Position numbers and translations under genes: made by a program. A stretch of DNA of 64,000 nt from an uncultured Microbacterium sp. (lineage in GTDB: Bacteria; Actinomycetota; Actinomycetes; Actinomycetales; Microbacteriaceae), in assembly GCA_913774665.1 (NCBI GenBank), contig CAJYHN010000004.1, forward strand, positions 124,001-188,000. Direction: 5' to 3'. Numbering within the stretch: the stretch's first letter is position 1; every line of letters starts with the position of its first letter. The notes below the pieces were generated by a model, which saw only the letters and a list, made by a program, of their open reading frames with translations, made no database searches and had not been told where the DNA came from. Shown piece by piece: positions 1 to 64,000 of this stretch.

Positions 1-1977
1 GCACGCGCGCTCGTACATGTCGCGCACGACCGACTTGGGCGACAGCTCGAAGTCGCGGATCCACGGCTGGCTGGAGGCGAACACCTCGTACGCCTGCGCG
101 AGCAGCCGGTCGAGGGGCTTCGGCCAGGTGATCTCCTCGAGCAACTCCATGCGCTCGTCGTACTCGATGCCCTCGCGCTTCATCGCCGCGACGGCTTCGC
201 CACGCGCGCGGAACTGCTGCTGCGACAGGATCGGGCGCGGGTCGTCGAGGGTCGACTCGATGACGCTGACGACGTCGAGCGCATAGTGCCCCGTGCCCAC
301 CGATGACGCCGGGGGCGCGGCATCCGGCCCCCTCCCGAGCTCGACCTCGGGGTCGAGCATCTCGATCGCGGCGAGCGCGAAGGGCGAGAGGGGCTGATTG
401 AGCGCGAAGTTCGGCTGCAGATCGACGGTGAGCCTGATGCGTGAGGGGTCGGAATCTGTCGCTTGACCCCCCTCTGAAGCGACAGTCTTCGACCCCTCAC
501 GCGAGGGCGGGGCGACCTCGACCACGCCGGCCTGCACCAGGGTGCGGAAGATCGCGATCGCGCGGCGCGCGAGCTCGTACTGGCGGGCTCGGGGCTCGTG
601 GTTGTCGAAGACGAGCGAGCGGACGTTCGCGAAGACGTCGCCGCCGCGCGCGATGACGTTGATGAGCATCGCGGCGCTCAGCTTCATCTGCGGCTGCAAC
701 GGTTCGGGCTCGGCCGCGACGAGGCGGTCGTAGCTCTGCTCGGTCCAGTTGACGAAGCCCTGCGGCGCCTTCTTGCGCACGATCTTCTTCTGCTTCTTGA
801 GGTCGTCGCCGGCCTTGGCGATCTGCGCGGCGTTCTCGATCTCGTGGTCGGGCGCCATGACGACCACGGTCCCCGCGGTGTCGTAGCCGGCCCGGCCCGC
901 GCGTCCGGCGATCTGATGGAACTCGCGCGCCGAGAGCTGGCGCATGCGGGTGCCGTCGTACTTGGTCAGCGCCGTCATGAGCACGGTGCGGATCGGCACG
1001 TTGATGCCGACGCCGAGGGTGTCGGTTCCGCAGATGACGCGCAGCAGGCCCCGCTGGGCGAGCGTCTCGACCAGGCGCCGGTAGCGCGGCAGCATCCCGG
1101 CGTGGTGCACGCCGATGCCTGCGCGGACGTATCGCGACAGCGTCTTGCCGAAACCGGTGGTGAAGCGGAAGCCGCCGATCGCCTCGGCGATCTCGTCGCG
1201 CTGCTCGCGCCCGATGATGCGGATCGACGACAGCGCCTGCGCGCGCTCCATCGCGGCGGCCTGGGAGAAGTGCACGACGTAGACGGGCGCCTGCTTCGTG
1301 TCGAGCAGCTCCTGCACCGTCTCGTGCACGGGAGTGCGCGCGTACTCGAAGTGCAGCGGCACGGGGCGCTCGACGCCGGTCACCCGCGCGGTGGGCCGCC
1401 CGGTGCGGCGCGAAAGGTCGTCCGCGATGTCGTCGACGTCGCCGAGGGTCGCCGACATGAGGATGAACTGCGCGCGGGTCAGCAGCAGCAGCGGCACTTG
1501 CCACGCCCAGCCGCGATCGGCCTCGCCGTAGTAGTGGAACTCGTCCATGACGACCTGGTCCACGTCCGCCTCGGCCCCCTGTCGCAGGGCGAGGTTCGCG
1601 AGGATCTCGGCGGTGCAGCAGATGATCGGGGCGTCGGAGTTCACCGACGAATCGCCCGTGACCATCCCGACGTTCTCGGCGCCGAAGATGTCGACGAGGG
1701 CGAAGAACTTCTCGCTCACCAGGGCCTTGATCGGCGCCGTGTAATACGTGCGTCCACCCCGGGAGAGGGATGCCGCGTGCGCAGCGACCGCGACGAGCGA
1801 CTTGCCCGTGCCGGTCGGGGTCGACAGGATCACGTTGGCGCCCGAGACGATCTCGATGACCGCCTCGTCCTGCGCGGGGTAGAGCGTGAGGCCGCGGGAG
1901 TTCGCCCACTCGACGAAGCCCAGGTAGGCGGCATCCGGATCGGCGCCGACGGGAACGTGCTCGAGGAGGGGGGTCAC
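1..1977 (-). CDS. DEAD/DEAH-box helicase, DUF3516 type (3' end beyond window)
   Basis: Superfamily 2 RNA/DNA helicase, 659 codons visible; the C-terminus lies beyond the left edge. Walker A STPTGTGKS is at residues 52-60, the Walker B/DEAH-like motif reads VMDEFHYY, and motif VI reads HQIAGRAGRAGYD, so both RecA lobes are intact. The downstream part matches the DUF3516 C-terminal region of actinobacterial Ski2/Dob1-like helicases, inferred to act in RNA processing or decay. The start is GTG at 1977 (VTPLLEHVPVG): a stop lies just upstream in this frame and GAGG precedes it. Residues about 492-513 are encoded by an imperfect palindrome (439-502) that looks like an in-frame insertion in the linker before the C-terminal domain. 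Confidence 0.9.
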   Translation of the reverse strand, partial: MTPLLEHVPVGADPDAAYLGFVEWANSRGLTLYPAQDEAVIEIVSGANVILSTPTGTGKSLVAVAAHAASLSRGGRTYYTAPIKALVSEKFFALVDIFGAENVGMVTGDSSVNSDAPIICCTAEILANLALRQGAEADVDQVVMDEFHYYGEADRGWAWQVPLLLLTRAQFILMSATLGDVDDIADDLSRRTGRPTARVTGVERPVPLHFEYARTPVHETVQELLDTKQAPVYVVHFSQAAAMERAQALSSIRIIGREQRDEIAEAIGGFRFTTGFGKTLSRYVRAGIGVHHAGMLPRYRRLVETLAQRGLLRVICGTDTLGVGINVPIRTVLMTALTKYDGTRMRQLSAREFHQIAGRAGRAGYDTAGTVVVMAPDHEIENAAQIAKAGDDLKKQKKIVRKKAPQGFVNWTEQSYDRLVAAEPEPLQPQMKLSAAMLINVIARGGDVFANVRSLVFDNHEPRARQYELARRAIAIFRTLVQAGVVEVAPPSREGSKTVASEGGQATDSDPSRIRLTVDLQPNFALNQPLSPFALAAIEMLDPEVELGRGPDAAPPASSVGTGHYALDVVSVIESTLDDPRPILSQQQFRARGEAVAAMKREGIEYDERMELLEEITWPKPLDRLLAQAYEVFASSQPWIRDFELSPKSVVRDMYERAC
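439..502. repeat. Imperfect palindrome inside the helicase coding sequence
   Basis: Two 26-nt arms (439-464 and 477-502) pair with 3 mismatches around a 12-nt loop. Each arm starts GCGTGAGGGGTCG and ends CTGTCGCTT. It is in frame in the helicase gene, where it encodes a low-complexity Ser/Glu/Thr-rich linker (REGSKTVASEGGQATDSD). The arm architecture resembles the intergenic palindromes at 40863-40935, 52306-52388 and 53486-53564. The word GAATCTGTCGC also occurs at 30477-30487. Confidence 0.7.
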
Positions 1978-2168
1978 TCCCCCAGCCTCTCATCCGCGGA
2001 GAGCCTGCGAACCCGCAGACGGCCGCCCCTCTCGCGGACGCTGCCGTCGTCGTCACGGGAGGCGCCGCAGTCGCGATCGCGTCAGCCGCGGGCGCCGCCG
2101 CAGTCGCGGTCGCCGGCGCAGTCGCGATCGCCGGCGCAGTCGCGGTCGCCGGCCCAGTCGCGATCGCG

Positions 2169-2945
2169 TCAGCCGCGGTCGCTGAAGACGCCGACGTTCT
2201 CGCCGTCGAACACGAACTGCATGCTCGTGCCGATCGGGAACCGCTGGATGAACGCGTCGGGCATGCCGTCGGCGACGACGAACTGCACGGTCGCCGGGAA
2301 CACCCCGGCCCCGCACCCGCCGTAGACGAAGTTGCCGCGGAATGCGCGGGTGTCGTCCTTACCCATCTCGTCGGCGTCCAGCAGGTAGAGGCAGGGAATG
2401 CGATTCTCGGTCGCGTCGGTCGGAGACCGACCCGTGAACGCGGCGATGCCGTAGTAGTTCTCGTAGGCGCGCTCCGCGCCGGTGCGCTGGCCGAACACCG
2501 GCGGCACCGCGGCGTCGGGGGCGGGCACGAGGGTGTCGACCTGCGGAGCGCCCGCCGCCGCGCTCACCGGGACGAGGGTCAGGCTCGCGGCCGTCGCTGC
2601 GCTGGCGAGGGCGGCCACCACCGCGAGCGAGGCCGCCCAGACCCAGAGCCGGCGTTTCGACCCCACGAGGGCGGGGCGCACCCGCGGGCCGTCGTCGCCG
2701 TCCTCGTCCTCTTCCTCGTCGCCGTCGCTCTCGCCGTCGGGGGCGACGACAGCGGCCCGTGAGCCCGCTGCGGCGGCCGCGGAGGTCACCGGCGATCGCG
2801 GAGGCGGCGGCACGCGATCCTGTCGTTCGAGATCCTCGAGCTCGCGCAGCCGCGCGACCGCGGCCGCGTCATCGGCGATGTCGGCGTGGGGACCGTACGC
2901 TCTCGCGCGGAGCAGTCTCAGCTCCTCGCGCACGTCATCGTCCAT
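2169..2945 (-). CDS. Hypothetical single-pass membrane protein
   Basis: A 258-residue protein of unknown function. Residues 1-50 form a charged, probably helical N-terminus with repeated Arg/Glu. Residues 70-88 are an acidic stretch (DGESDGDEEEDEDGDD). One transmembrane helix follows at about 100-125, then an extracytoplasmic domain of about 130 residues with three cysteines that may form a disulfide. The start is ATG at 2945 (MDDDVREEL); the reading frame is open further upstream but that part has no family-like composition. It stands alone and is divergent from the flavin oxidoreductase at 3036. I recognise no family. Confidence 0.65.
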   Translation of the reverse strand: MDDDVREELRLLRARAYGPHADIADDAAAVARLRELEDLERQDRVPPPPRSPVTSAAAAAGSRAAVVAPDGESDGDEEEDEDGDDGPRVRPALVGSKRRLWVWAASLAVVAALASAATAASLTLVPVSAAAGAPQVDTLVPAPDAAVPPVFGQRTGAERAYENYYGIAAFTGRSPTDATENRIPCLYLLDADEMGKDDTRAFRGNFVYGGCGAGVFPATVQFVVADGMPDAFIQRFPIGTSMQFVFDGENVGVFSDRG

Positions 2946-3035
2946 ATCCTGAATGGTTCCACACCTGCACGCCTCCGGGGGCCGCGCGCGGTGTATGCGT
3001 GGGAATAGATCGCCGACCGTCGCGTTGCACCCTGT

Positions 3036-4070
3036 ATGCGCTCCTTCGGCACACTCTCCTTCGGCCACTACGGTCCTCTCGGCGGCGGCCGCCAGCTCAC
3101 CGCCGGCGACTCGATGCTCCAGGCGATCGACCTCGCCCAGGGCATGGACGACCTCGGCGTCAACGGCGTCTCGTTCCGCGTGCACCACTTCGCCCGCCAA
3201 CAGGCGGCCCCGATGCCCCTGCTCGCGGCGATCGCCGCCCGCACCTCGCGCATCGAGGTCGGCACCGGCGTCATCGACATGCGCTACGAGAACCCGCTCA
3301 TGCTCGCCGAAGAGGCGGCATCCGTCGACCTCATCAGCGGCAACCGGCTCGCCCTCGGCGTCAGCCGTGGGTCACCCGAGACGGTCGTGCGCGGCTACGA
3401 GGCGTTCGGGTACACCGGCTCGCAGGACCCGCGGGGCGGCGACATCGCCCGCGAGCACTTCGACCTGTTCCTGCGCGCGATCGACGGCGAGGGTCTCGCC
3501 GAGCGCGATCCCCTGAGTCCCTTCGGCGGGGGCACGGGCCTTCAGCGCATCGAGCCGCACTCCCCGGGCCTGCGCCAGCGCATCTGGTGGGGTGCCGGCA
3601 CCACGGCGACCGCCGAATGGGCCGGACGCCTCGGCGTGAACCTCATGTCGTCGACTCTGCTCACGGAGGCCGACGGCACGCCGTTCGACCTGCTGCAGGC
3701 CCAGCAGCTCGACGCCTTCCGCGCCGCCTGGCGGGAGGCGGGACACGCGGGCGAACCGCGCACCTCGGTCAGCCGCAGCATCTTCCCGATCGTGACGGCC
3801 GAAGACGAGATGTACTTCGGCGGCTCGGCCGGCAGCGATCAGATCGGTGTGATCGACGGCATGCGCTCGACCTTCGGCAAGACGTACGCGGCCACCCCCG
3901 ACGCGCTCGTCGAGCAGCTGCAGAACGACGCTGCCGTGATGAGCGCCGACACCCTCATGCTCACGATCCCCTCGCAGATGGGTGTGGAGTTCAACCTGCG
4001 CCTCGTCGAGAACTTCGCGAAGCACGTCGCTCCCGCCCTCGGCTGGCAGTCGACGCTCGCGACGGTCTGA
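3036..4070 (+). CDS. LLM-class flavin-dependent oxidoreductase
   Basis: A 344-residue luciferase-like monooxygenase family protein. The N-terminus (FGTLSFGHYGPLGGG) and the segment EVGTGVIDMRYENPLMLAEEA are typical of the F420/FMN TIM-barrel fold, followed by the usual LISGNRLALGVSRGSPE segment. The substrate cannot be told from sequence. The gene is monocistronic and ends directly before a long perfect hairpin terminator. The start is ATG at 3036; no strong ribosome binding site is visible. Confidence 0.88.
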   Translation: MRSFGTLSFGHYGPLGGGRQLTAGDSMLQAIDLAQGMDDLGVNGVSFRVHHFARQQAAPMPLLAAIAARTSRIEVGTGVIDMRYENPLMLAEEAASVDLISGNRLALGVSRGSPETVVRGYEAFGYTGSQDPRGGDIAREHFDLFLRAIDGEGLAERDPLSPFGGGTGLQRIEPHSPGLRQRIWWGAGTTATAEWAGRLGVNLMSSTLLTEADGTPFDLLQAQQLDAFRAAWREAGHAGEPRTSVSRSIFPIVTAEDEMYFGGSAGSDQIGVIDGMRSTFGKTYAATPDALVEQLQNDAAVMSADTLMLTIPSQMGVEFNLRLVENFAKHVAPALGWQSTLATV

Positions 4071-4071
4071 G

Positions 4072-4132
4072 CGAAACCCCGAACGGACCCGGATGCCGAT
4101 CGCCTCGGCATCCGGGTCCGTTCGGGGTTTCG
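4072..4132. terminator. Perfect 28-bp hairpin with inverted GGATGCC core
   Basis: Arms 4072-4099 and 4105-4132 are exact reverse complements with a 5-nt loop. The outer part (CGAAACCCCGAACGG) carries A/T at its base, and the apex of each arm is CCGGATGCCGA or its complement. It begins 1 nt after the stop of the flavin oxidoreductase and could also serve the convergent membrane-protein gene at 4245-4529. It is one of five terminators here built on a GGATGCC/GGCATCC-type pair. Confidence 0.85.
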
Positions 4133-4244
4133 AGAGGACGCGACCGTCGTCGTCGCGCGCGGGACACCGCTGCCGCCTCGTCGACGCCCGGAGGTCGGGC
4201 TCCTCAGCGCGCGACGTCGGTGACGCCGTCGCGCGCGGCAGGGA

Positions 4245-4529
4245 TCACCGGTAGCCCGTCAGCCCGCGCGAGCGGGCGAGGGTCTGCGTCACGAGGTACT
4301 CGCCCCAGGCCACGGCATAGGCGCCGAGGGCAGCCCACACCCACCCGGAGGGCAGGATGCCGATGAGCCCGAGCAGCGCCGCGATCGTCAGCACGACGAC
4401 GACGGCCAGGACCGGCACGATCGCCCGCGCGCCGATGACACCCGCGGTGGTTCGCCAGATCACCAGCAACGCTCCCGCCGTCGCGACGAGGAGGATGACG
4501 GGGGTGAACCAGGGCCCCAGGGCACCCAT
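4245..4529 (-). CDS. Small hypothetical membrane protein
   Basis: 94 residues from the first ATG (MGALGPWFTP), with three hydrophobic segments (about 8-25, 35-60 and 62-78) and an RSRGLTGYR tail. The same frame continues upstream of the ATG with a hydrophobic stretch (ASLTVAGVGAAIT) and then a Pro/Arg-rich region, but I find no ATG, GTG or TTG there, so the true start is uncertain. It is divergent from the GNAT fusion gene at 4742. Function unknown. Confidence 0.6.
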   Translation of the reverse strand: MGALGPWFTPVILLVATAGALLVIWRTTAGVIGARAIVPVLAVVVVLTIAALLGLIGILPSGWVWAALGAYAVAWGEYLVTQTLARSRGLTGYR

Positions 4530-4741
4530 GGTGATCGCGGCCCCGACACCGGCGACGGTCAGAGAGGCGGTGCGGAGGGCGCGGATCCTCGTCGGAGAGG
4601 GCGAAGCGGCGATGGGGGGCTCCTTCGGGGGGCGGAAGACACGGAGGGGCTGAGCGCCGTCGACAACGGCGGGCGACCGATGTTTCCAGCGTACCCACGC
4701 CGCGATCCGAGTCCCCGGGCGTTCGTGTCTACGGTGGACTG

Positions 4742-5908: not shown

Positions 5909-5912
5909 CCCC

Positions 5913-6380
5913 TCATCCGATGCTCGGGTAGCCGGTGTGCTCGACCGGAGCGGTGTCGGGGTGGACGTTGCGGAACGCGGCGAGGTCGCGGACGTTCTTC
6001 TGCACGGCCACGACGGCGAACAGGCTCATGGCGAATCCGATGCCGTAGAACCCCTTCTCCGACAGGAGGAGCTCGGCGTTCCAGAGCCCCACGGACATGA
6101 GCGCGAGGGCGACGAGCAACATCCCCCACGCGACGCCGAGGTAGGCACCCGTGACCGGGATGTCTTCCGCACGGTCGCGCACCGCCTTCTGCACCGAGAT
6201 GGCGGCGAACAGTCCGAGGAGGAACACCGAAAGGTAGAACCCCTTCTCGGCGAGAGTCATGTGCGCGTTGTAGAGGCCGATGAAGTACACCGAGGCCCCT
6301 AGCCCCAGCGCCACCCACGAGGCCCCCACGAACGCTCCGGTCGGGCGACCGAGCATCTGCTGAGCGTGTACATCCGTCAT
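5913..6380 (-). CDS. YiaA/YiaB-family inner membrane protein
   Basis: 155 residues made of two homologous halves, each with two transmembrane helices and the signature of YiaA/YiaB domains: SVYFIGLYNAHMTLAEKGFY then VQKAVRDRAEDIP in the first, and SVGLWNAELLLSEKGFYG then VQKNVRDLAAF in the second. The function of the family is unknown. The start is ATG at 6380. Its 3' end lies 5 nt from the convergent GNAT fusion gene. Confidence 0.85.
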   Translation of the reverse strand: MTDVHAQQMLGRPTGAFVGASWVALGLGASVYFIGLYNAHMTLAEKGFYLSVFLLGLFAAISVQKAVRDRAEDIPVTGAYLGVAWGMLLVALALMSVGLWNAELLLSEKGFYGIGFAMSLFAVVAVQKNVRDLAAFRNVHPDTAPVEHTGYPSIG

Positions 6381-34690: not shown

Positions 34691-34706
34691 TCGCGACCTG
34701 AGGGGG

Positions 34707-34731
34707 CGGATGCCGGGCACCTCGGCATCCG
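34707..34731. terminator. Hairpin with inverted GGATGCC pair
   Basis: CGGATGCCG (34707-34715) and CGGCATCCG (34723-34731) pair around a 7-nt loop, 16 nt after the MFS stop and upstream of the convergent ATPase gene's 3' end. The sequence following is TCTCGCTCC, a weak U-tract. Confidence 0.65.
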
Positions 34732-34781
34732 TCTCGCTCCTGCCGCCACGGGCCGGGCCCCGGCCCGCGCCCTGGGCCGAC

Positions 34782-40815: not shown

Positions 40816-40862
40816 CCGTCGCCCGCCCGTCCGTCCGCCCCGCCCCACCCCGCCCTCACCTC

Positions 40863-40935
40863 CCGCGATAAACGCCCTCCCGTTCGAGACACGCGGTCCC
40901 ACGCCGTGTCTCACCACGGATGGCGTTTCTCGCGG
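40863..40935. repeat. Imperfect 31-bp palindrome (GAGA...CACG type)
   Basis: Arms 40863-40893 and 40905-40935 pair at about 24 of 31 positions around an 11-nt loop. Each arm starts CCGCGA(T/G)AAACGCC and ends GAGACACG. The arms share word content and layout with the palindromes at 52306-52388 and 53486-53564. Confidence 0.75.
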
Positions 40936-40989
40936 CCCCGCGTCGCCTCCACGTTGCACCCCCGGCATCCGCCCGTCCCCGCACGCAGA

Positions 40990-45062: not shown

Positions 45063-46073
45063 ATGAGCGGAATCGCCGATGTGGCACGCCTGGCCGGCGT
45101 GTCCAAGTCGACGGCAAGCCGCGCTCTCACGGGCGGCGGCTATGTCTCCGACCTCACGCGCCAACGTGTCACCGACGCCGCGGCATCCCTCGGCTACGTC
45201 CCCTCCACGAGCGCGGTGAGCCTCGCGACGGGGCGCACCCGCACGATCGCCCTGATCGTGCCGAAGGTGAACCGCTGGTACTTCGGCTCGATCGTCGAAG
45301 GGGTCGAGCGCACGCTCATCCCCCTCGGCTACGACGTCACCCTCTACGTGGCGGAGCCGGGATCGAACGACCGCGAGAGCCTGTACTCCACGTACCTGGC
45401 CCGCAAGCGGTTCGACGGCATCATCGCCGTCGCCCTCGAGCCGGACGACGCCGACCTCGAGCGCCTCGCGAACATCGGCAAGCCGGTGGTGAGCATCGGA
45501 AACGCCCTCAGCGGCGTCCCCACCCTCGGCCTCGACAACATCGCGATCACGCGCATCATCACGCAGCACCTCATCGCGCTCGGGCACACCGACATCGCCT
45601 TCGTCGGCAGCACCCCCCGCAGCGACGCGCCCGCCAAAGACGTGGACGAACGCTCGATCGGATATCGGAACGCGATGAACGACCACGATCTGGCCGTGCG
45701 CATCCGCAGCGTGCCGTCCACCCTGACGATCACCGACGCGTACGCGGCCGCCGCCTCGTTCCTGGCCGATGCGGCCTCGCGTCCCACCGGCGTGGTCGCC
45801 GCGTGCGACGAGGTCGCGATCGGCGTCATCATCGCCGCGCGACGGATGGGCATCTCGGTCCCCACCGAGCTCAGCGTCGTCGGGATCGACGGCCATGACT
45901 ACGCCGAGATGTTCTCCCTCACCACGATCGAGCAGTTCCCGCAGGCGCAGGGGGTCGAGGCGACCCGCCTCCTCCTGTCGATGATCGAGGGAACCAGTGA
46001 ACCGGCCCGGCGGACAGAGGCCGAGACCCGGCTGGTCGTCCGCGCCTCCACCGCTCCCCCGCGCGTGTCCTGA
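45063..46073 (+). CDS. LacI-family transcriptional regulator
   Basis: 336 residues. The N-terminal helix-turn-helix is IADVARLAGVSKSTASRAL; the periplasmic-binding-like domain follows (LIVPKVNRWYFGSIVEGVER, TGVVAACDEVAIGVIIAARR, ELSVVGIDGHDYAEMF). ATG 45063 (GAGGAAG upstream) starts the family sequence; the frame is open further upstream. It is inferred to repress the divergent sugar importer. Confidence 0.92.
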   Translation: MSGIADVARLAGVSKSTASRALTGGGYVSDLTRQRVTDAAASLGYVPSTSAVSLATGRTRTIALIVPKVNRWYFGSIVEGVERTLIPLGYDVTLYVAEPGSNDRESLYSTYLARKRFDGIIAVALEPDDADLERLANIGKPVVSIGNALSGVPTLGLDNIAITRIITQHLIALGHTDIAFVGSTPRSDAPAKDVDERSIGYRNAMNDHDLAVRIRSVPSTLTITDAYAAAASFLADAASRPTGVVAACDEVAIGVIIAARRMGISVPTELSVVGIDGHDYAEMFSLTTIEQFPQAQGVEATRLLLSMIEGTSEPARRTEAETRLVVRASTAPPRVS

Positions 46074-46117
46074 AAAGACGGGACCCCGGATGCCGTGGCA
46101 TCCGGGGTCCCGTCTTT
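46074..46117. terminator. Perfect bidirectional 21-bp hairpin
   Basis: Begins directly after the lacI stop: AAAGACGGGACCCCGGATGC-C, loop GT, then the exact complement ending GTCTTT. The A/T ends make it work on both strands, for lacI (+) and the nuclease gene (-). The apex is GGATGCC-GT-GGCATCC. Confidence 0.9.
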
Positions 46118-46125
46118 CTCACTGA

Positions 46126-49100
46126 TCAGTCGGCGCGACGCGTCGCCCGTCGGCGGACCACGAGGCCGAGGCCGAGCAACGCGAGCGCGGCCAGCACGCC
46201 CGCACCCATCCACGTGGTGTCGGCGCCCGTCGTCGGCAGCGAGCCGCGACCGGACCCGTTCTGCGCCTGGCCCGCGCCCGCACCGGGAACGCCGGCGCCG
46301 TCACCGGCCGCGGTCACCTGCACGGGTACCACCACGGCGGTCCCGGTGGGCTGCGCGGTCAGGCGCAGCTGCAGGGTCCCGACGGCGTCCGCGGGCACGC
46401 CCACGGTCACGGTCGCCGAGCCGTCGACCACCGCGACGCTGGTCGCAGCGGGTGCGGCGAGCGCCGCGATCCGCGCCGACGGGGCGGCGAGCGCCATCGT
46501 CCGGGCCGTCGCGCGAGGCGACACCGTCTCGGCGCCGAACGAGGCGTCGAGCGTCGTGTTCGCCGGCGCGCCGAGCGAGGTGAGGTCGAGGTTCGACACG
46601 GTCACCGTGAGATCGGTACCCGGTGCTGCTGCACGCGCCCCCGACACCTGCACGCCGCGGGCGGTGAAGTCGGGGGTGAGCCCCGGGTTCTTCTTCAGGT
46701 AATCGATCCACGCGTCGCGGTCGATGAGACCGGAGTCGCGGGTGTCGGTTCCCTTCGCGAAGACCGAGAAGCTGTCCCCTCCCCCGAGCAGGAAGTTGAA
46801 CGAGCCCACGCGGTACCCCTTCGCCGGGTCGACGGGGACGCCGTCGATCCAGACTCCCGTGATGCGCTGCCCCGCGGGGAGCGTCGCGTCGTAGGTGTAG
46901 CGGAGGTTCTCCGAGACGCCGAGCGACAGGTTCGCGTTATCGGTGCGCTTCGCGAAGTCGCCCCACTGCTGCTCGAGGACCTGACGCACCTGATCCCCGG
47001 TGAGGGTCGTGGTCCAGAGGTTGTTGAGGAAGGGCAGGACCGCGTTCGCCTCCGCGAGCGTGATCTCGCCGTTGGCGTCGTAGAGCAGCTCGTCGCGCAG
47101 ACCACCGGCGTTGACGAACGAGACCTCCGCCCCGCCGCGGTCGGAATCGTCGAGCGAGTCGAGCAGGGCATCGGCCACCAGGCCGCCCAGCGCCGACTGC
47201 TTCGTCCGGTCGCCCCGAGTGCCGCCGGCGTACACGCCGTCGACGTACGAACCGCCGCTGAAGGCCGTCGTGATGTCCGCGGTGACCGACCCGACGGGCT
47301 GACGTCCGACGATGTCGGCCTGGGCCCGCGCGGCCTTGACGATGGAGTCGACCTTCGCGACGCGCGGGTAGGTCCGGATGAGTTCCGCGTCGAGGGCGGC
47401 GTTGACGGCCGCGTCCTTCCCACCCGCTCGAGCGACGTTCCGCGCGGAGGAGCTCACGACGTGGCCGTCCGCGTCGACGTTCAACACGATCTGTCCGACG
47501 TTCTCCCCGTAGTTGCCGGTCTGGACGATCGGGCGAGTGCCCTCTCGGCCGGGGATCGGCGCGTTCCACGCGTAGAGCTGGTGCGTGTGACCGGTGAAGA
47601 TGGCATCCACCTCGGGCGAGGTCTCGTTCACGATGTCCGCGAACGGTCCGCCCGCCGCGACGGCCTGTTCGAGGGTCGTCGTGGCCTGGCCTGCGCCGGA
47701 GCCCTCGTGGTACTGGGCGACGATGACGTCGACCTTGTCGTCGATCTCTGCGACGACGCGGTTCACCTCGGCGACCGGCTCGCGGAACTCGATTCCCTGG
47801 ATGCCGCTGGGGGTGACCAGCGTCGGGGTCGACTCCGTGATGGCTCCGATGACGCCGACGCGCACACCGTCGACCTCGAAGATCGCGTACTCCTGCAGCA
47901 GGGGCTTGCCGTCCTTGAAGACGTTCGCGGCCAGGTACGGGAAGTCGGCGAGGCCGTCGACGCGATCGGTGAGGTCGTTCGCGCCCTTGTCGAACTCGTG
48001 GTTCCCCGCGGCCGAGGCCTTGAGCTCGAGCGCGTTCAGCACGTCGATGGTCGGCTTGTCGCCGAAGTACGACGAGGCGAACACCGAGGCGCCGATGTTG
48101 TCTCCGTTGGAGATGAACAGCGAGTTCTTCTCGCCGTACTGCGCGCGAACCTGCTCGACGGTCCCGGCGAACCGGACGGTGTTGGCGTCGATCCGACCGT
48201 GGAAGTCGTTGATGCCGACCAGGTTCACCTGCGTCGTCGGAGACAGGTCGAGACCCACGATGACCGGGTCGTGATCGCTGGAGCGGTACGGCGTCGTGTC
48301 GTAGAAGTTCAGCGCGTTGTAGTTGTAGCGGCTGTACTCCAGGGCCAGAGCCTCGACGGCGTTGATGTTCCAGATGTCGGCGCCGGTCACCAGCTCGCGC
48401 GCAGAAGGCGAGGCCAGCACGTGATCGAGCGAACCCGACTGACCGCTGAACGAGTAGGAGTACTTGCCGGTGCCCGCCTCGAGCGGCTCGAAGCCGAAGT
48501 CGCGCAGCTTCTGGATCGGGTCTTCCTGCGAGTACGAGTTGAAGTCGCCGAGCAGGAACACGTCGTCGGTACCCACCGCGGCCGAGCGGGTCTTCGCGAA
48601 GTTCCCGAGGGCCTCCGCCTGACGCACCCGGTCGCCGTTGAACGCACCCTGGATGCCGTTGGCGTTGTCGCCCGTCGCCTTGGGGTCGCTGTCGCCCTTC
48701 GACTTGAAGTGGTTCACGATCGCCAGGATCTTGGCCTCCGGGAACGCGACCGGGGCGAACGCCTGCGCGAGCGGTTGGCGTGCGTTGCGGAAGGCGGCGT
48801 CGTTGAAGATGACGCTGTCGCCGACGGGAGCGGCGACGGCCTTCTTGTAGATGAAGGCCGTGCGGATCACGTCCTCCGTCGTGGGCAGGGCCGCGGGCGA
48901 GGGGACGAAAGCCCACTGCTCCGATCCGAGCGCGGTGTTGAGGGCACCGACGAGGGTCGACAGTGCGGCGTCGCGATTCTTACCGAACTTCGCGGAGTTC
49001 TCGATCTCTTCCAGCGAGACGACGTCGGCGCCGAGACCGTTGATGGCGGCGACGATCTTGGCCTGCTGGCGCTTCAGGTTCTCGTCGTTCGCGGCGCCGC

Positions 49101-50930: not shown

Positions 50931-51014
50931 CTCATCTCCTGAAACCGGGTCTCACACCCGTCTGGTCGCCTTGCCCCCGGGCGGACGACCGCTATCGACG
51001 CTCACGAAAAACGA

Positions 51015-51048
51015 CGAAGGCCCGGATGCCATGGCATCCGGGCCTTCG
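51015..51048 (-). terminator. Rho-independent terminator of rplJ-rplL
   Basis: CGAAGGCCCGGATGCC (51015-51030), loop AT, GGCATCCGGGCCTTCG (51033-51048): perfect 16-bp stem. On the minus strand it is followed by TCGTTTTTCG, a real U-tract, 32 nt after the rplL stop. The centre GGATGCCATGGCATCC is fully palindromic. Confidence 0.93.
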
Positions 51049-51079
51049 TTTATCGCGTTGAAGCGACGGTGAAGTGAAA

Positions 51080-54028: not shown

Positions 54029-54037
54029 GCTAACAAC

Positions 54038-54805: not shown

Positions 54806-54807
54806 TG

Positions 54808-58254: not shown

Positions 58255-58256
58255 CC

Positions 58257-59141: not shown

Positions 59142-59210
59142 GAAGGAATGCTAATGGTCCTGAAGAATCCTGAGCTGGTCTACGGGCGGACGGCGCCCTA
59201 GCGTCGAGAT

Positions 59211-59876
59211 GTGCTCACCCCTCTGCTCGCCGGCCTGGGCCTCGGCTTCTCCCTCATCGTCGCCATCGGCGCGCAGAACCTCTTCGTCCTGAGACAGGGC
59301 ATCCGCCGCGAGCATCTGCTCGCCGTCGTCGCCGTCTGCGCGCTCTCGGACGCGGTCCTGATCCTGCTGGGGGTCTCGGGCGTCGGCCTGGTGCTGAACG
59401 CCGTACCGTGGCTCATCATCGTCGTGCGGTGGGCGGGAGCGGCGTTCCTCCTCGGTTACGGCCTCCTCGCCGCGCGGCGCGCTCTGCGCCCCAGCGGTGC
59501 GACGCTGCACCTCGACGGCGGCGCCCCGGCACTCCCTCCGGCTCGGGATGCCGGGAGCACGACGGTCCGCACCCGCCCGGCGCGGACGAGCCTCGCCACG
59601 GCCGTCCTCACCTGTCTCGCGCTGACCTGGCTCAATCCGCACGTCTACCTCGACACGGTGTTCCTGCTCGGATCGGTCGCCTCGACGCACGGCGACGGAC
59701 GCTGGGCGTTTGCGGCAGGTGCGTGCGCGGCGAGCCTCGTGTGGTTCTCGGCGCTCGGCTATGGGGCTCGGTACCTCGGCCGCTGGCTCGACACTCCCCG
59801 CGCGTGGCGCATCCTCGACGGCGTCATCGCCGTCGTGATGTGCGCGATCGCCGTCTCGCTCGTGCTTCCCCACTGA
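59211..59876 (+). CDS. lysE: LysE/ArgO basic amino-acid exporter
   Basis: 221 residues, about six membrane helices. The LysE start SLIVAIGAQNLFVLRQGIRR and LTWLNPHVYLDTVFLLGSV are strongly conserved. Exports lysine/arginine in excess. GTG 59211; divergent from lysG, 69 nt apart. Confidence 0.93.
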   Translation: MLTPLLAGLGLGFSLIVAIGAQNLFVLRQGIRREHLLAVVAVCALSDAVLILLGVSGVGLVLNAVPWLIIVVRWAGAAFLLGYGLLAARRALRPSGATLHLDGGAPALPPARDAGSTTVRTRPARTSLATAVLTCLALTWLNPHVYLDTVFLLGSVASTHGDGRWAFAAGACAASLVWFSALGYGARYLGRWLDTPRAWRILDGVIAVVMCAIAVSLVLPH

Positions 59877-59931
59877 GGCCGCCGAGACCGCTCGCTCGCC
59901 GGAGCGTTCGTTGCTCGGCGAGAATGGGCTG

Positions 59932-60207
59932 ATGCGAACGGCGACGATGACGGTGAGCGGCCGCGTCCAGGGTGTCGGCTTCCGCTACTCCCTCCGGGCC
60001 GAGGCCGAGCGCCTCGGTGTCGGCGGGTGGGTGCGCAATCGCCGCGACGGCTCGGTCGAGGCGTTCCTCACCGGAGACCCCGATGCCGTCGAGACGGTGA
60101 TCGCCTGGGCGCACGACGGACCGGCCGGAGCCCGCGTCGACGACCTCGACGTCATCGAGGGCACCGGGGAGTCGGCATCCGGATTCGAGATCCGCCCCAC
60201 GGCCTGA
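59932..60207 (+). CDS. acyP: Acylphosphatase
   Basis: 91 residues. SGRVQGVGFRYSLRAEAERL carries the catalytic Arg, and WVRNRRDGSVEAFLTGDPD the catalytic Asn. Hydrolyses acyl phosphates such as carbamoyl phosphate. ATG 59932 chosen; the frame is open to 59911 but with no site for initiation. Convergent with the nitronate monooxygenase, 1 nt apart. Confidence 0.92.
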   Translation: MRTATMTVSGRVQGVGFRYSLRAEAERLGVGGWVRNRRDGSVEAFLTGDPDAVETVIAWAHDGPAGARVDDLDVIEGTGESASGFEIRPTA

Positions 60208-60208
60208 G

Positions 60209-61252
60209 TCAGCCGGGCAGCCCCGCCCGCAGTTCATCGATGACGTCCGCGGCGTCGTCCAGGCGGGACAGCCCCGCCGACTGCCCCGCCCACAGCGACA
60301 CGAGATCCCCGTCGCCGCGCGCCGTCGCCGCGGCGCGGAACACCCCGGTGAGCCAGTTCTGCGCCGGGAAGGGGGCGATCAGGCCCGAGGCCTCGATCTC
60401 GCGCAGGGCGCGGTTCGGGATGCCACGCGCCAGCCGCCCGCTCATCGCTCGCGTGAGCACCGTGTCGGTGTCGGCCGCCGCCGAGATCGCCTCGCGGTGC
60501 GCGGTGGTGGCCGCCGACTGGCGGGTGCGCAGGAACGCGGTCCCGACCTGGACGCCCTCCGCTCCGAGCGCGAAGGCCGCCGTTACCCCGCGGCGATCGG
60601 CGATCCCGCCCGCCGCGATCACGGGGATGCCCACGGCGTCGACGACCTGCGGCACGAGAGCGAACGTGCCGACGAGCGACGACGACGCCTCCCGCAGGAA
60701 CGACACCCGGTGTCCTCCTGCCTCCGACCCGGTCGCGACGACGGCATCGACGCCCGCCTCCTCGAGGGCGACCGCCTCGGCGACAGTGGTCGCGGTGCCG
60801 ATCACGCGGATCCCGCGCTCTCTCGCGGCGCGGAGGGTGTCGGCATCCGGGATTCCGAAGACGACGCTCAGCACGTCGGGACGCGCCTCGAGGACCGCAT
60901 CGAGCTGCGCGGCGATCGGCGGGAGGAAGGATGCCGGGGGTTCCGGAACCTCCACCCCGGCCGCCGCGAACAGGGGGGCCGCGGCGTCGAGGAACGGCTG
61001 CACGTCCAGATCGGCGGCATCCGCCTCGTCACCGCGCGGAAGCCACAGGTTGACGGCGACAGGGCGCGACGTGGCCGCTCGCAGCTGCGCCACCGTTTCT
61101 CGGATGCGGTTCGGCGCGTACCCGTAGAGGCCGTACGAGCCGAGCCCTCCCCCGTCGCTCACCGCCGCGGTCAGCGCGATCGAGGACAGCCCGCCGAAGG
61201 GACCGAGGACGAGGGGAAGGTCGATACCGAGAAGGGTCTCGAGGCGGCTCAT
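60209..61252 (-). CDS. Nitronate monooxygenase family protein
   Basis: 347 residues, FMN TIM-barrel: LVLGPFGGLSSIALTAAVSD at the start, VDAVVATGSEAGGHR in the active-site region and GIADRRGVTAAFALGAEGVQ. Oxidises alkyl nitronates such as propionate-3-nitronate, or related substrates. Monocistronic; ATG 61252. Confidence 0.88.
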   Translation of the reverse strand: MSRLETLLGIDLPLVLGPFGGLSSIALTAAVSDGGGLGSYGLYGYAPNRIRETVAQLRAATSRPVAVNLWLPRGDEADAADLDVQPFLDAAAPLFAAAGVEVPEPPASFLPPIAAQLDAVLEARPDVLSVVFGIPDADTLRAARERGIRVIGTATTVAEAVALEEAGVDAVVATGSEAGGHRVSFLREASSSLVGTFALVPQVVDAVGIPVIAAGGIADRRGVTAAFALGAEGVQVGTAFLRTRQSAATTAHREAISAAADTDTVLTRAMSGRLARGIPNRALREIEASGLIAPFPAQNWLTGVFRAAATARGDGDLVSLWAGQSAGLSRLDDAADVIDELRAGLPG

Positions 61253-61261
61253 ACCTCGACG

Positions 61262-62077
61262 CTACTGCGCGCCGTGCTCTTCGGGACCACCCGAGGGGTC
61301 GGGTCCGTCGAGGGGACGCAGCAAGCGGTTGAGGAAGCGCTGCGTGCGCTCCATCTTCGGCTGGCGGAGGAGGTCCGACGGAGCACCGCGCTCGACGATG
61401 ACCCCCTCGTCGAAGAACAGGACCTCGTCGGCGACCTCGCGGGCGAAGCCGAGCTCGTGGGTGACGATGACCATCGTCCACCCCTCGTTCGCGAGTTCGC
61501 GGAGGACCGTGAGGACCTCGCCGACCAGCTCGGGGTCGAGGGCGCTCGTCGGCTCGTCGAACAACAGCAGAGAGGGCTGCAGGGCCAGAGCGCGCACGAT
61601 GCCCACGCGCTGCTGCTGGCCGCCGGACAGCTCGGACGGATACGCGTCGCGCTTCTCCGACAGCCCCACGCGCGCCAGCAGGGTCTCGGCGCGGGCGATC
61701 GCCTCGGCCTTGGGCACGCCGTGCGCCTGGATCGGGCCCTCGATGACGTTCTGGATGACCGTCAGATGCGGGAAGAGATTGTGGTGCTGGAAGACCATCG
61801 CCGAGCGATCGCGCAGGGAGGTGCGGTCGCTCTTGGACACCTTTCGTGAGAAGTCCACGACCGGCCCCCCGTCGAACGCCACCACCCCGGCTTCCGGGGT
61901 CTCGAGGCCGTTCAGGCTGCGCAGAACGGTCGTCTTCCCCGAACCCGAGGGACCGATGAGGACGAGCACGTCGCCGCGGCGGACCTCGAGGTCGACGCCG
62001 TCGAGCACGCGGTTCGTGCCGAAGCTCTTCTGCAGGCCCGAGACGGAGAGCAGAGGGGCGGAGTCAGTGGGCGACAT
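61262..62077 (-). CDS. Amino-acid ABC transporter ATP-binding protein
   Basis: 271 residues. Walker A LIGPSGSGKTTVL, signature ELSGGQQQRVGIVRAL, Walker B LLLFDEPTSALD, and H-loop VTHE, of the polar-amino-acid (GlnQ/TcyC) type. Its start overlaps the permease gene by 14 nt. Third gene of the importer. Confidence 0.93.
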   Translation of the reverse strand: MSPTDSAPLLSVSGLQKSFGTNRVLDGVDLEVRRGDVLVLIGPSGSGKTTVLRSLNGLETPEAGVVAFDGGPVVDFSRKVSKSDRTSLRDRSAMVFQHHNLFPHLTVIQNVIEGPIQAHGVPKAEAIARAETLLARVGLSEKRDAYPSELSGGQQQRVGIVRALALQPSLLLFDEPTSALDPELVGEVLTVLRELANEGWTMVIVTHELGFAREVADEVLFFDEGVIVERGAPSDLLRQPKMERTQRFLNRLLRPLDGPDPSGGPEEHGAQ

Positions 62078-62729
62078 GGCGGTCCAGCCTCTTTTCCAGG
62101 GCGTTCTGCCCGAACGACAGCACCAGGCAGAACAACCAGTAGATGAGCGCGGCTTCGAGGTACACCGCCATGAACTCGTACGAGAAGGCCGCGGTGGCCT
62201 GTGCCTGGCGGAAGAGCTCGGTGACGAGGATGAGGGATGCCAGCGAGCTGTCCTTCACGAGCGAGATGAACGTGTTCGACAGCGGCGGCACCGACACGCG
62301 AGCGGCCTGCGGGAGGATGATGCGCGTCAGCGTCTTGCGCGGAGACAGCCCCACCGTGTGCGCCGCCTCCCACTGCCCGCGCGGCACCGACAGGATCGCG
62401 GCGCGGATGACCTCGGCCGCGTACCCGCCGACGTTCAACGAGAAGGCGATGACGGCGGCCGGGAAGGGATCGATCGTCAGGCCGAGCGAGGGAAGGCCGT
62501 AGAAGATCACGAACAGCTGCACCAGCAGGGGCGTCCCGCGGATGATCGAGATGTAGAACCGGGCGACGCCCGACAGCACCACGTTCCGCGACAGCCGCAG
62601 CAGCGCCATGGCCAACGCGATCACGAGACCGATCGCGAACGAGGCCAGGGACAGCGGGATCGTGCCCGTGATCCCGGCCAGAACCATCGGCCAGAACGAG
62701 TCGACGAGCAGGGTCCAGATTTCGTTCAT
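62064..62729 (-). CDS. Amino-acid ABC transporter permease
   Basis: 221 residues, about five membrane helices, with the HisM-type motif LYISIIRGTPLL-like stretch (FYISIIRGTPLLVQLFVIFY) and EAAHTVGLSPRKTLTRIILP. Homodimeric pore likely. ATG 62729; hairpin upstream separates it from the binding-protein gene. Confidence 0.93.
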   Translation of the reverse strand: MNEIWTLLVDSFWPMVLAGITGTIPLSLASFAIGLVIALAMALLRLSRNVVLSGVARFYISIIRGTPLLVQLFVIFYGLPSLGLTIDPFPAAVIAFSLNVGGYAAEVIRAAILSVPRGQWEAAHTVGLSPRKTLTRIILPQAARVSVPPLSNTFISLVKDSSLASLILVTELFRQAQATAAFSYEFMAVYLEAALIYWLFCLVLSFGQNALEKRLDRHVAH

Positions 62730-62751
62730 GGGCCTCCTTCCTCACGCGCGA

Positions 62752-62798
62752 GCGGATCATCCGCCCCCCACGCTACGGCGGGAGGGCGGATGATCCGC
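62752..62798 (-). terminator. Intercistronic hairpin after the binding-protein gene
   Basis: GCGGATCATCCGCCC (62752-62766) and GGGCGGATGATCCGC (62784-62798) are exact 15-bp complements with a 17-nt loop. It lies between the binding-protein stop and permease start and likely gives partial termination or mRNA protection. Confidence 0.75.
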
Positions 62799-62817
62799 GG
62801 GGGTTTACTCCGACGGG

Positions 62818-63621
62818 TTACTTCGTGACGTCGGCCCCGAAGTACTTGTCGCTGATCGACGCGAGGGTGCCGTCGGCACGGAGTTCGTCGAGCGCACCGT
62901 CGACGGCATCCGCCAGCTTGTCCTTGCCCTTCTTGAAGGCGAAGGCGCTCTCGGAGGAGTCCTCCGTGGTCGCCGCGATCTTCAGACCCGTGGGGCTGTT
63001 CGTCTTCTCGTAGTCGAGGTAGGTCAGCTGGTCGTTGACCGTGGCGTCCACGCGGCCCTGCTTGAGCAGGGCGACCGCCTGGGCCCAGCCCTCGACGGCC
63101 TCGACCTGGGCGCCGCTCGAGGTGGCGAGTTCGTACCAGTTGCTCGTGAGCGACTGCGCGGTGGTCTTGCCCGACAGATCGGCGAAGCTCGAGATGGCGC
63201 TGTCGCCGTCGGTCGTCACGATGACGCCCCGCGAGACGGTGTACGGCGAGCTGAAGGTGTACTTCTCCTGGCGCTCGGGGTTGATCGACACCTGATTGGC
63301 GATGACGTCGAAGCGGCCGGCGTCCAGGCCCGCGAAGATCGCGTCCCACTGGGTCTCCTGGAACTTCACCTGCAGGCCGAGCTTGTCGGCGACCGCCTTC
63401 GCGATCTCGACGTCGAAGCCCGTCAGCTCCCCCGCACCCTCGTGGTACGAGAAGGGACGATAGGTCCCCTCGGTGGCCACGGTCAGCGTGCCGCCGGAGA
63501 CGAGGCCGAGGTCGGCTCCCGCGTCGGGGTTCGCTGCGGTGGAGCCGCCGCTGCAGGCGGTCAGCGCGAGGGCACTCAGACCCAGGGTGGCGGCGAGGAC
63601 GGTCAGACGGCGACGGGGCAT
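62818..63621 (-). CDS. Amino-acid ABC transporter substrate-binding lipoprotein
   Basis: 267 residues. Lipoprotein signal with lipobox LALTACSGG; binding-protein family 3 body: VATEGTYRPFSYHEGAGELT, GFDVEIAKAVADKLGLQV and NDQLTYLDYEK. Polar amino-acid specificity; the exact ligand is unknown. ATG 63621. First gene of the importer operon, downstream of rplA. Confidence 0.93.
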   Translation of the reverse strand: MPRRRLTVLAATLGLSALALTACSGGSTAANPDAGADLGLVSGGTLTVATEGTYRPFSYHEGAGELTGFDVEIAKAVADKLGLQVKFQETQWDAIFAGLDAGRFDVIANQVSINPERQEKYTFSSPYTVSRGVIVTTDGDSAISSFADLSGKTTAQSLTSNWYELATSSGAQVEAVEGWAQAVALLKQGRVDATVNDQLTYLDYEKTNSPTGLKIAATTEDSSESAFAFKKGKDKLADAVDGALDELRADGTLASISDKYFGADVTK

Positions 63622-63779
63622 GGCTGTTCCAGACGTGTGTGAGGTGGGGACCGCGCGGTGCGGGCGCGGGAGTATCGGCGCGAAGCGCGCCCTCCAGCAC
63701 AACACGATCAGGCGCACGGACCTTCCCGGATGACGCCGTGTTGCACGATCGTGCAGGCCCGGCGCCCCTCGGAGACGCG

Positions 63780-63813
63780 AAAACCCCGCCGGCACAGGGC
63801 ACGGCGGGGCTTT
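63780..63813 (-). terminator. Terminator of the rplA transcript
   Basis: CCCCGCCG (63784-63791) and CGGCGGGG (63802-63809) pair exactly; on the minus strand the stem ends GGGGTTTTCG, a short U-tract, 13 nt after the rplA stop. It ends the ribosomal operon before the amino-acid importer. Confidence 0.8.
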
Positions 63814-63825
63814 CGGTGACGGATG

Positions 63826-64000
63826 TCAGACGATGACGTTGACGTCCAGCGGGATGCCGGGGCCGAACGTGGTCGACACGGCACCCTTCTGGATGTAACG
63901 GCCCTTCGAGCTCGACGGCTTGAGGCGGACGATCTCCTCGAGAGCGGCGGCGAGGTTCTCGTCGAGCTGCTCAGCGGTGAACGACGCCTTGCCGACGACG
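63826..64000 (-). CDS. rplA: Ribosomal protein uL1, C-terminal part (5' end beyond window)
   Basis: The last 57 codons and stop are visible: [40 protein letters not shown] and [12 protein letters not shown], which match the end of L1. The rest lies beyond the right edge. rplK is presumably upstream outside the window. Confidence 0.95.

What the first reader, a model, noticed from the sequence alone, without database searches (positions are those of the whole stretch)
1..64000. GGATGCC heptamer is strongly over-represented on both strands
By hand I count about 100 GGATGCC/GGCATCC sites in 64 kb, roughly 53 on + and 47 on -. A crude base-composition estimate for about 70 % GC gives about 15. 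Many sites lie in coding sequence, where the minus-form is read GCA-TCC and uses GCA, a codon otherwise rare here (for example 8217, 21166, 23018); this points to selection on DNA rather than protein. The lack of strand bias argues against a polar Chi- or KOPS-like role and fits a bidirectional signal such as a DNA-uptake or methylation motif.
Basis: partly seen in the sequence, partly recalled or inferred. Interest (0 to 1): 0.8.

Follow-up and report, generated by a model that had tools for sequence, protein, structure and literature searches.

The report
Chi-like word with lineage dialects
A seven-letter DNA word is scattered thousands of times through the genomes of Microbacterium and its relatives, and because related species use different versions that track one amino acid of a DNA-break-repair enzyme, it is probably a signpost that tells that enzyme when to stop chewing DNA and start repairing it.

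Summary
The window holds 101 GGATGCC (54 +, 47 -) where about 15 are expected; the 3.58 Mb genome holds 5487 against 375 for the reversed control. A synonymous-codon null fails (501 seen, 147 expected), and sites persist between species about twice as often as other words of like composition.

The organism is a Microbacterium. Within Microbacteriaceae the over-represented word keeps GGA and changes its tail by lineage (GGATGCC, GGATCCG, GGATGCG, GGATGGC, GGATGCT, GGAACCA, GGAGGCC, GGAGTCG).

RecC gave no match in 59 genus genomes; AdnA was found in 70 of 70 examined. In AdnA, fold relative of the Chi-binding AddB, one residue is glycine in 48 of 48 genomes whose word ends in C and something else in 10 of 10 whose word does not: the only such column of 1030, with none in AdnB or a near-universal methyltransferase.

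Best reading: a Chi-like signal of AdnAB. It lacks Chi's polarity, one prediction failed, and function is untested.

The parts
1..64000 (.). 101 GGATGCC sites. + strand starts: 1768, 4091, 4355, 5314, 5557, 7623, 8350, 9252, 10392, 11364, 12102, 13154, 13885, 14541, 15543, 16896, 18154, 20816, 21317, 22126, 23235, 23865, 24775, 26384, 26644, 28545, 30145, 30624, 30992, 32705, 34708, 35133, 36306, 38258, 39277, 40799, 41010, 42259, 46088, 47799, 48651, 49431, 49873, 51024, 54070, 54289, 56542, 58473, 59546, 60418, 60625, 60929, 62235, 63852. - strand (GGCATCC) starts: 319, 1930, 3317, 4107, 5209, 8209, 8878, 10624, 10989, 12294, 13915, 15993, 16831, 19280, 20027, 21164, 21497, 23023, 24192, 26303, 28016, 28752, 29355, 29745, 30221, 32069, 33572, 34348, 34724, 35694, 36868, 37333, 40964, 45182, 46097, 47602, 51033, 52432, 54389, 54874, 58060, 59076, 59298, 60174, 60842, 61016, 62905
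   Evidence: direct count; 82 touch called genes, 19 wholly intergenic; adjacent sites 69 opposite, 31 same orientation
4080..4124 (.). hairpin built on an inverted pair of the word (4091 +, 4107 -) in the gap between convergent genes; terminator-like
   Evidence: RNA fold -43.5 kcal/mol, z -7.6; gene calls
34700..34739 (.). hairpin built on an inverted pair of the word (34708 +, 34724 -) between convergent genes
   Evidence: RNA fold -31.0 kcal/mol, z -3.1; gene calls
46076..46115 (.). hairpin built on an inverted pair of the word (46088 +, 46097 -) between convergent genes; similar short copies occur elsewhere in relatives
   Evidence: RNA fold -39.9 kcal/mol, z -8.2; short extra matches; gene calls
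51010..51060 (-). hairpin built on an inverted pair of the word (51024 +, 51033 -), downstream of a gene that looks like ribosomal protein L7/L12 (by eye)
   Evidence: RNA fold -34.5 kcal/mol, z -6.8; gene calls

Best explanation
GGATGCC is a Chi-like recombination signal of the AdnAB helicase-nuclease, one dialect of a Microbacteriaceae-wide family of GGANNNN words. AdnAB would enter at a broken DNA end, unwind and degrade, and change behaviour when its AdnA subunit reads the word on one strand, sparing the DNA and leaving an end for RecA. Each break is approached from two sides, so both orientations are needed everywhere; this would explain equal strand counts, regular spacing within each orientation and alternation of orientations. 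When the AdnA reading site mutates, the lineage's word changes and the genome is rewritten slowly. SHOWN: genome-wide excess, DNA-level constraint, positional conservation, dialects, orientation-specific spacing (in GGATGCC genomes of Microbacterium), no RecC match in the genus sample, AdnA in all 70 genomes examined, covariation of one AdnA residue with the last base. INFERRED: that AdnA binds the word, that binding alters AdnAB, and every consequence for repair.
For: Excess. Conservation against 12 relatives at 80-87 % identity: 403 of 597 site comparisons conserved (67.5 %) against a mean of 35 % (sd 10 %) for the 263 other two-A/T 7-mers with at least 150 comparisons, rank 1; intergenic 53 of 75 against 32 %. 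Variants at all seven positions, so no single mutational route. Dialects: and under a codon-shuffle null (GGATCCG 154 against 28, GGAACCA 45 against 6, GGAGTCG 50 against 17, GGATGCT 34 against 9, GGAGGCC in Leaf336 105 against 52, GGATGGC in G032 46 against 17); whole-genome swap: G035 has 5668 GGATGCG and 1940 GGATGCC, G054 4726 and 2127, whereas the window genome has 1059 and 5487. Oriented spacing against a synonymous potential-site null: adjacent same-orientation 37 % seen, 50.5 % expected (z -6.5), second genome 41 % and 49.7 % (z -4.6); repulsion strongest under 200 bp. RecC 0 of 59; PDDEXK_1 59 of 59; both AdnAB subunits recovered in 40 of 40 loci read, one AdnB only in part, AdnA in 30 of 30 further genomes, AdnB in 24 of 24 sought; AdnAB identity by sequence and fold, with AddB of AddAB the next family. 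AdnA column 144 (residue 162 of the window genome's protein): G in 48 of 48 genomes (27 clades) with a C-ending word; A4, E2, D2, V1, T1 in 10 of 10 (6 clades) without; the only perfect column of 1030; 2 of 2000 clade permutations gave any perfect column, 0 of 1000 in a repeat. AdnB: none of 1082, best 4 errors. In a 19-genome subset the AdnA columns with at most one error are 144, 99, 100, 160, 199, 630 and 682, five of seven at 99-199 in the N-terminal helicase-like domain; AddB Chi-binding mutants are F68A and F210A (passages of PMC4824097).
Against: No leading-strand polarity, a hallmark of E. coli Chi. Density (about one per 650 bp) is far above Chi's one per 5 kb (PMC8022716). Oriented spacing is not significant in the other dialects or in Agromyces; GGATCCG leans the other way (63 same, 55.9 expected). 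The column was found after looking, and only the last base has a residue; bases 4-6 gave nothing usable. A prediction made beforehand failed: G039, with an AdnA like the GGATGCG genomes, has no GGATGCG excess and no clear word (that assembly is 44 % complete). AdnA of azadirachtae and Au-Mic1 (GGATCCG) otherwise looks like that of GGATGCC species. Two dialect assignments are weak under codon shuffling: G038 GGATGGC (29 against 15, rank 44 of 1870) and the four other Leifsonia (83 against 64, rank 245 of 3036). [quoted passage not shown]
Confidence: 0.6

Rival explanations
1. A DNA-uptake sequence: competent cells preferentially take up DNA carrying the word, and the dialects are uptake dialects as in Neisseriaceae.
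For: Density, non-palindromic word, dialects sharing a core, intergenic hairpins of inverted pairs (that uptake sequences do this is recalled) and ComEC in 58 of 59 genus genomes. DUS dialects are in print for Neisseriaceae (title and start of abstract of PMC3630211 in the listing).
Against: ComEC is equally present where the word is rare. A duplex-uptake receptor should treat both orientations alike, but only same-orientation sites repel. It does not explain the covariation with AdnA. No pilus or ComEA gene was tested.
Confidence: 0.17
2. A HIP1-like word created or maintained by a DNA methyltransferase and associated repair.
For: Cyanobacterial HIP1 is likewise very frequent, and alternate HIPs come with cognate methyltransferases (abstract of PMC4390886). 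A PF01555 methyltransferase occurs in 57 of 59 genomes.
Against: That methyltransferase's middle region is, by eye, almost unchanged across five dialects in the 20 genomes read, and no column follows the last base (0 of 318 without error, one with a single error). PF02384 occurs in only 33 of 59 and not in the window genome. The word is not a palindrome and is oriented. Other methyltransferase families were not searched.
Confidence: 0.1
3. A binding site of an abundant chromosome-organising or other DNA-binding protein.
For: High density in coding and intergenic DNA alike (1.43 and 1.73 per kb) and strong conservation.
Against: Orientation-specific spacing and the AdnA covariation are unexplained; no candidate protein was looked for here.
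Confidence: 0.1
4. An artefact of base composition, codon usage or dipeptide content.
For: Several other words have modest excesses under the same nulls.
Against: Markov, codon-shuffle, intergenic and comparative tests all reject it, and the word swaps wholesale between related species of like composition.
Confidence: 0.02

Closest known systems
Chi sites of RecBCD and AddAB (E. coli GCTGGTGG; Chi-like words of a few other species)
   Same: Short, non-palindromic, over-represented word; sparse in the two mobile-DNA stretches seen; directional reader inferred; candidate reader AdnA is the fold relative of AddB, the Chi-binding subunit
   Different: Candidate reader is AdnAB, for which Chi control is stated unknown (PMC4824097 passage); about eight times denser; no leading-strand polarity; word changes repeatedly within one genus
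DNA uptake sequences and their dialects in Neisseriaceae and Pasteurellaceae
   Same: Dialects with a shared core; high density and inverted pairs forming intergenic hairpins (these two recalled for uptake sequences)
   Different: Orientation matters here; reader candidate is a repair enzyme; uptake untested
HIP1 and alternate HIPs of cyanobacteria
   Same: Very high frequency and lineage-specific replacement words (abstract of PMC4390886)
   Different: HIPs are palindromes tied to cognate methyltransferases; here the word is oriented and the near-universal methyltransferase does not follow it

Membership tests
Chi / Chi-like recombination signal | over-represented in the resident genome | tested here: met
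   5487 against 375 control; codon null 501 against 147
Chi / Chi-like recombination signal | core-genome preference, poor in acquired DNA | tested here: inconclusive
   only two mobile stretches seen: prophage-like L084 13 sites and mobile-element-like L117 9 sites per 20 kb, the other sampled 20 kb stretches 16-54; no formal core-genome test
Chi / Chi-like recombination signal | polarised to the leading strand | tested here: not met
   371 + and 351 - over 20 stretches of one chromosome, chi2 9.0
Chi / Chi-like recombination signal | read directionally | tested here: inconclusive
   same-orientation repulsion in Microbacterium GGATGCC genomes, not significant in other dialects
Chi / Chi-like recombination signal | a helicase-nuclease that could read it | tested here: met
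   PDDEXK_1 in 59 of 59, AdnA in 70 of 70 examined, AdnAB by sequence and fold; RecC 0 of 59
Chi / Chi-like recombination signal | the word alters the helicase-nuclease and stimulates recombination | not testable with these tools
   needs biochemistry or genetics
DNA uptake sequence | naturally transformable host with competence genes | tested here: inconclusive
   ComEC in 58 of 59 whatever the word count; competence itself unknown
DNA uptake sequence | fragments with the word are preferentially taken up | not testable with these tools
   needs uptake assay
HIP1-type iterated palindrome | palindromic word | tested here: not met
   GGATGCC is not its own reverse complement
HIP1-type iterated palindrome | cognate methyltransferase changes with the word | tested here: inconclusive
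   PF01555 enzyme conserved across five dialects in 20 genomes and PF02384 patchy speak against; other methyltransferase families not searched
KOPS-type segregation signal | replichore-polarised orientation | tested here: not met

The most novel reading that the evidence does not exclude
Microbacteriaceae carry the first Chi-type code of the AdnAB class: a GGA-headed heptamer read by AdnA, rewritten thousands of times per genome whenever the AdnA reading site changes, so that species are marked by recombination dialects and the protein-DNA recognition code can be read from genomes alone.
Probability: 0.5. Interest if true: 0.93.

Novelty: new variant of a known kind. Interest (0 to 1): 0.83.

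Why it matters
Whether AdnAB, a break-resecting enzyme class of actinobacteria, obeys a Chi signal is stated to be unknown (PMC4824097, 2016). Here is a concrete candidate word, several natural dialects of it, and a named residue that tracks one of its bases, which makes the question directly testable. If true, closely related species would carry different recombination passwords, giving a natural experiment in how a signal present thousands of times can be replaced and whether it limits gene exchange between species.

Tried and rejected
Base-composition and codon artefact: rejected. KOPS or replichore-polar signal: rejected. RecBCD as reader: no RecC match in 59 genomes. General depletion of near-miss words, as a repair bias would give: not found (summed O/E 0.90, rank 377 of 1344; lowest are GGAGGCC 0.45, GGATGGC 0.55, GGACGCC 0.67 and GTATGCC 0.69). 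Presence or absence of ComEC as the cause of low counts: rejected. Type of AdnAB pair (two diverged types) as the cause of dialect: rejected, both types occur with GGATGCC. Columns for bases 4, 5 and 6: nothing usable. Smaller 33-genome test: AdnA 3 and AdnB 2 perfect columns, not decisive by itself. Rfam: no hit in the window. A terminase query to reach Microbacterium phages: the tally names 19 Microbacterium records but none is among the 40 shown, and I did not follow it. Search for WhiB-like proteins in own stretches: nothing.

Rows dropped before the column test: 12 of 70 genomes (G002, G004, G026, G029, G039, G040, G103, G104, G106, G108, G110, G111), because the word was weak, mixed or unknown or the region was missing. 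Kept GGATGCC genomes have 2842 copies or more; the weak ones dropped have 2613 or fewer. Of the 12, eight have G at the column (their best words, where one could be named, are weak or mixed and end in C), G004 has V (2899 GGATGCG and 2384 GGATGCC), G110 has E (GGATGCT/G, weak), G039 has A (no clear word), and G106 lacks the region. In one search two more (G001, G112) were left out. Some genomes are near-duplicates (G037 and G112; probably G050 and G114), hence the use of clades. G038, kept as C-ending, is a weak assignment; without it the count is 47 of 47.

Full report
WHAT IS THERE. The window holds 54 GGATGCC on the + strand and 47 on the - strand. Order-2 and order-3 Markov models expect 15 and 17.5, and among words with expectation above 2 no other 7-mer has so high a z at orders 2, 3 or 4. 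Only a weak extension is seen: G follows in 77 of 101. The window lies in a 3,575,913-base genome in 14 contigs that carries 5487 copies, against 375 of the word read backwards. The organism is a Microbacterium of the testaceum/proteolyticum group by its CydA relatives (98 % to M. testaceum NBRC 12675).

IT IS SELECTED AS DNA. In 404 kb of this genome (17 sampled stretches plus the window; 355 called genes) there are 593 sites, 1.43 per kb in coding and 1.73 per kb in intergenic DNA. Shuffling synonymous codons within genes predicts 147 +- 9 in coding sequence; 501 are there. The frame that needs the rare codon GCA has 136 where 3.7 are expected. Intergenic DNA has 83 where 11 are expected. 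Aligned with 12 relatives at 80-87 % identity, a site in the window is intact in the relative in 403 of 597 comparisons, against a mean of 35 % for the 263 other two-A/T words with at least 150 comparisons; intergenic sites, 53 of 75 against 32 %. Where one species has the word and another does not, the difference can be at any of the seven positions, and near-miss words are not generally depleted. That fits selection on the whole word better than one biased repair step.

IT IS ORIENTED. In the window 69 adjacent pairs are in opposite and 31 in the same orientation. In the 404 kb sample, gaps between same-orientation sites are too regular (CV 0.81, null 1.01 +- 0.04) and rarely under 150 bp (3.9 %, expected 11.2 %); five control words show no comparable effect. 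The effect survives a null that places words only where the protein allows them: adjacent same-orientation 37 % against 50.5 % (z -6.5) here, 41 % against 49.7 % (z -4.6) in Microbacterium sp. SORGH_AS_1204. Opposite pairs are broadly near expectation, apart from an excess of convergent pairs under 25 bp; in the window four such pairs lie in intergenic hairpins with folding z of -3.1 to -8.2. Against this, the effect is not significant in the other dialects or in Agromyces. There is no strand polarity: 371 + and 351 - in 20 stretches round one chromosome (SORGH_AS_1204), chi2 9.0; the window's own assembly is not closed, so it was not tested there.

IT HAS DIALECTS. Counts in 58 further genus genomes range from 697 (in a 44 % complete assembly; otherwise 812) to 6796, and in 39 genomes of other families of the order from 309 to 2007. 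Agromyces and Compostimonas also have it (4389-5342 copies). Of ten low-count genus genomes sampled at 40 kb each, seven show another GGA word: GGATCCG (G043, G057), GGATGCG (G035, G054), GGATGGC (G032; weaker in G038), GGATGCT (G050); G026 is unclear and G002 and G004 keep a weak GGATGCC. Named strains add GGATCCG (M. azadirachtae, Au-Mic1), GGATGCT (AG1240, probably the same species as G050), GGAACCA (M. mitrae), GGAGGCC (Leifsonia Leaf336) and GGAGTCG (Rathayibacter). Under codon shuffling in coding sequence: GGATCCG 154 against 28, GGAACCA 45 against 6, GGAGTCG 50 against 17, GGATGCT 34 against 9, GGAGGCC in Leaf336 105 against 52, GGATGGC in G032 46 against 17; G038 (29 against 15) and four other Leifsonia (83 against 64) are weak. 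Weak or mixed: Herbiconiux, Labedella, Compostimonas. No clear word: G039, M. sufflavum, strain CBA3102. Whole-genome counts confirm one swap: 5668 and 4726 GGATGCG in G035 and G054, 1059 in the window genome, at most 2899 in the others of 59. In stretches of eight genomes from seven other families of the order no GGA word was the top 7-mer, though G062 (GGACGTC 34 against 11) and G059 (GGACGCC 35 against 13) show moderate ones, so the reach beyond the family is open. Most samples are 20-60 kb, so weak dialects are provisional.

A directional reader of short words on broken DNA suggests a Chi-type helicase-nuclease. RecC gave no match in any of 59 genus genomes. PDDEXK_1 matched in 59 of 59; both AdnAB subunits were recovered from 40 of 40 loci read, one AdnB only in part, AdnA in 30 of 30 further genomes and AdnB in 24 of 24 sought. 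The window genome's pair matches the solved AdnAB chains at E 1.6e-112 and 2.1e-140. A model of AdnA (mean pLDDT 81.7, pTM 0.54) finds AdnAB first and AddB, the Chi-binding subunit of AddAB, next. [quoted passage not shown] That these AddB positions correspond to the AdnA region below is my inference from the shared N-terminal domain.

I aligned AdnA and AdnB of 40 genomes. Among columns nearly invariant in 28 GGATGCC genomes, those changed in at least 4 of 7 other-dialect genomes were 9 of 308 in AdnA, seven of them between positions 73 and 199, and 4 of 400 in AdnB, scattered. Extended to 70 genomes, of which 12 were set aside for weak or unknown words, one column stands out. Position 144 of the trimmed alignment (residue 162 counting the start Met; the residue before the FR.ELR motif; start of a helix in the model) is G in 48 of 48 genomes whose word ends in C, and A, E, D, V or T in 10 of 10 whose word does not. 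No other of 1030 columns separates them; 2 of 2000 clade-label permutations gave any such column and 0 of 1000 in a repeat. Five different replacements in six clades argue for repeated events. AdnB has none of 1082 (best 4 errors). In 19 of the 20 genomes whose near-universal PF01555 methyltransferase was read (G004 left out), that enzyme has none of 318, its middle region is by eye almost constant across dialects, and the AdnA columns with at most one error are 144, 99, 100, 160, 199, 630 and 682. The test was made after the pattern was seen, and four variable bases could have been tried, so the permutation figure is optimistic. One forecast written down beforehand, GGATGCG for G039, failed. 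G004, with V at the column, has both GGATGCG (2899) and GGATGCC (2384) raised, as a relaxed last base would give.

HOW IT LIKELY WORKS. AdnAB enters a broken end, unwinds, and AdnA scans one strand; at GGATGCC the enzyme pauses or changes mode, sparing the DNA beyond and handing an end to RecA. Both orientations are needed because both ends of a break are processed. A second same-orientation copy close by adds little; this is my inference for the repulsion. That AdnA binds the word, and that binding matters, is not shown.

KNOWN OR NEW. 'GGATGCC' as a whole word occurs in two open-access PMC papers, neither about bacterial genomes by title and abstract. Searches for Microbacterium or Microbacteriaceae with uptake sequences and for actinobacterial Chi, AdnAB and Microbacterium listed no report of it among the 20, 20 and 12 papers shown. 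PMC8022716 (abstract and passages) says Chi-like sequences were known for five species and describes polarity and core-genome excess as Chi properties. The polarity criterion is not met here, so I say 'works like Chi' and do not file it as a Chi site. HIP1 (PMC4390886, abstract) is the nearest parallel for frequency and replacement words, and DUS dialects (PMC3630211, listing only) for lineage-specific words.

Noticed in passing
window 40835-40947: Intergenic segment with many 72-81 % similar copies elsewhere in relatives' genomes (a dispersed intergenic repeat), seen.
   Followed up: no
window 46057-46135: Short intergenic hairpin (inverted GGATGCC pair) with 84-100 % similar copies of 30-57 bp elsewhere in several relatives; probably a family of word-built terminators.
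   Followed up: partly
L084 (G000:C1:120001-140000): Prophage-like stretch (terminase-like, portal-like and DNA-methylase-like genes by eye; the terminase matches phage terminases) with only 13 copies of the word.
   Followed up: partly
L117 (G098:C1:3515001-3535000): Mobile-element-like stretch, GC 0.62, recombinase-like gene by eye, only 9 copies of the word.
   Followed up: partly
L321 (G000:C7:20000-21500): PF01555 DNA methyltransferase found in 57 of 59 Microbacterium genomes, usually as one strong copy (G026 has only weaker matches), with a strongly conserved middle region: an orphan-like housekeeping methyltransferase of unknown target.
   Followed up: partly
AdnAB loci of 40 genomes (L210-L249): Two diverged types of AdnAB pair in one genus (AdnA about 47-53 % identical between types); some genomes (G011, G027, G049) carry more than one pair-like set. 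The AdnB frame of G001 appears interrupted.
   Followed up: no
L012: Record titled Planococcus sp. APC 4015 is Microbacterium-like by CydA (77 %), GC 69 % and GGATGCC excess (24 against 3.8): probably mislabelled.
   Followed up: no
L031 (Microbacteriaceae bacterium PS02066): 10 kb locus with GGATGCG as top word (19 against 4.6) and a single GGATGCC: possibly another GGATGCG lineage.
   Followed up: no
L174 (G062:C2) and L173 (G059:C1): Other families of the order show moderate excess of GGACGTC and GGACGCC: possibly more distant GGA words, not tested further.
   Followed up: no
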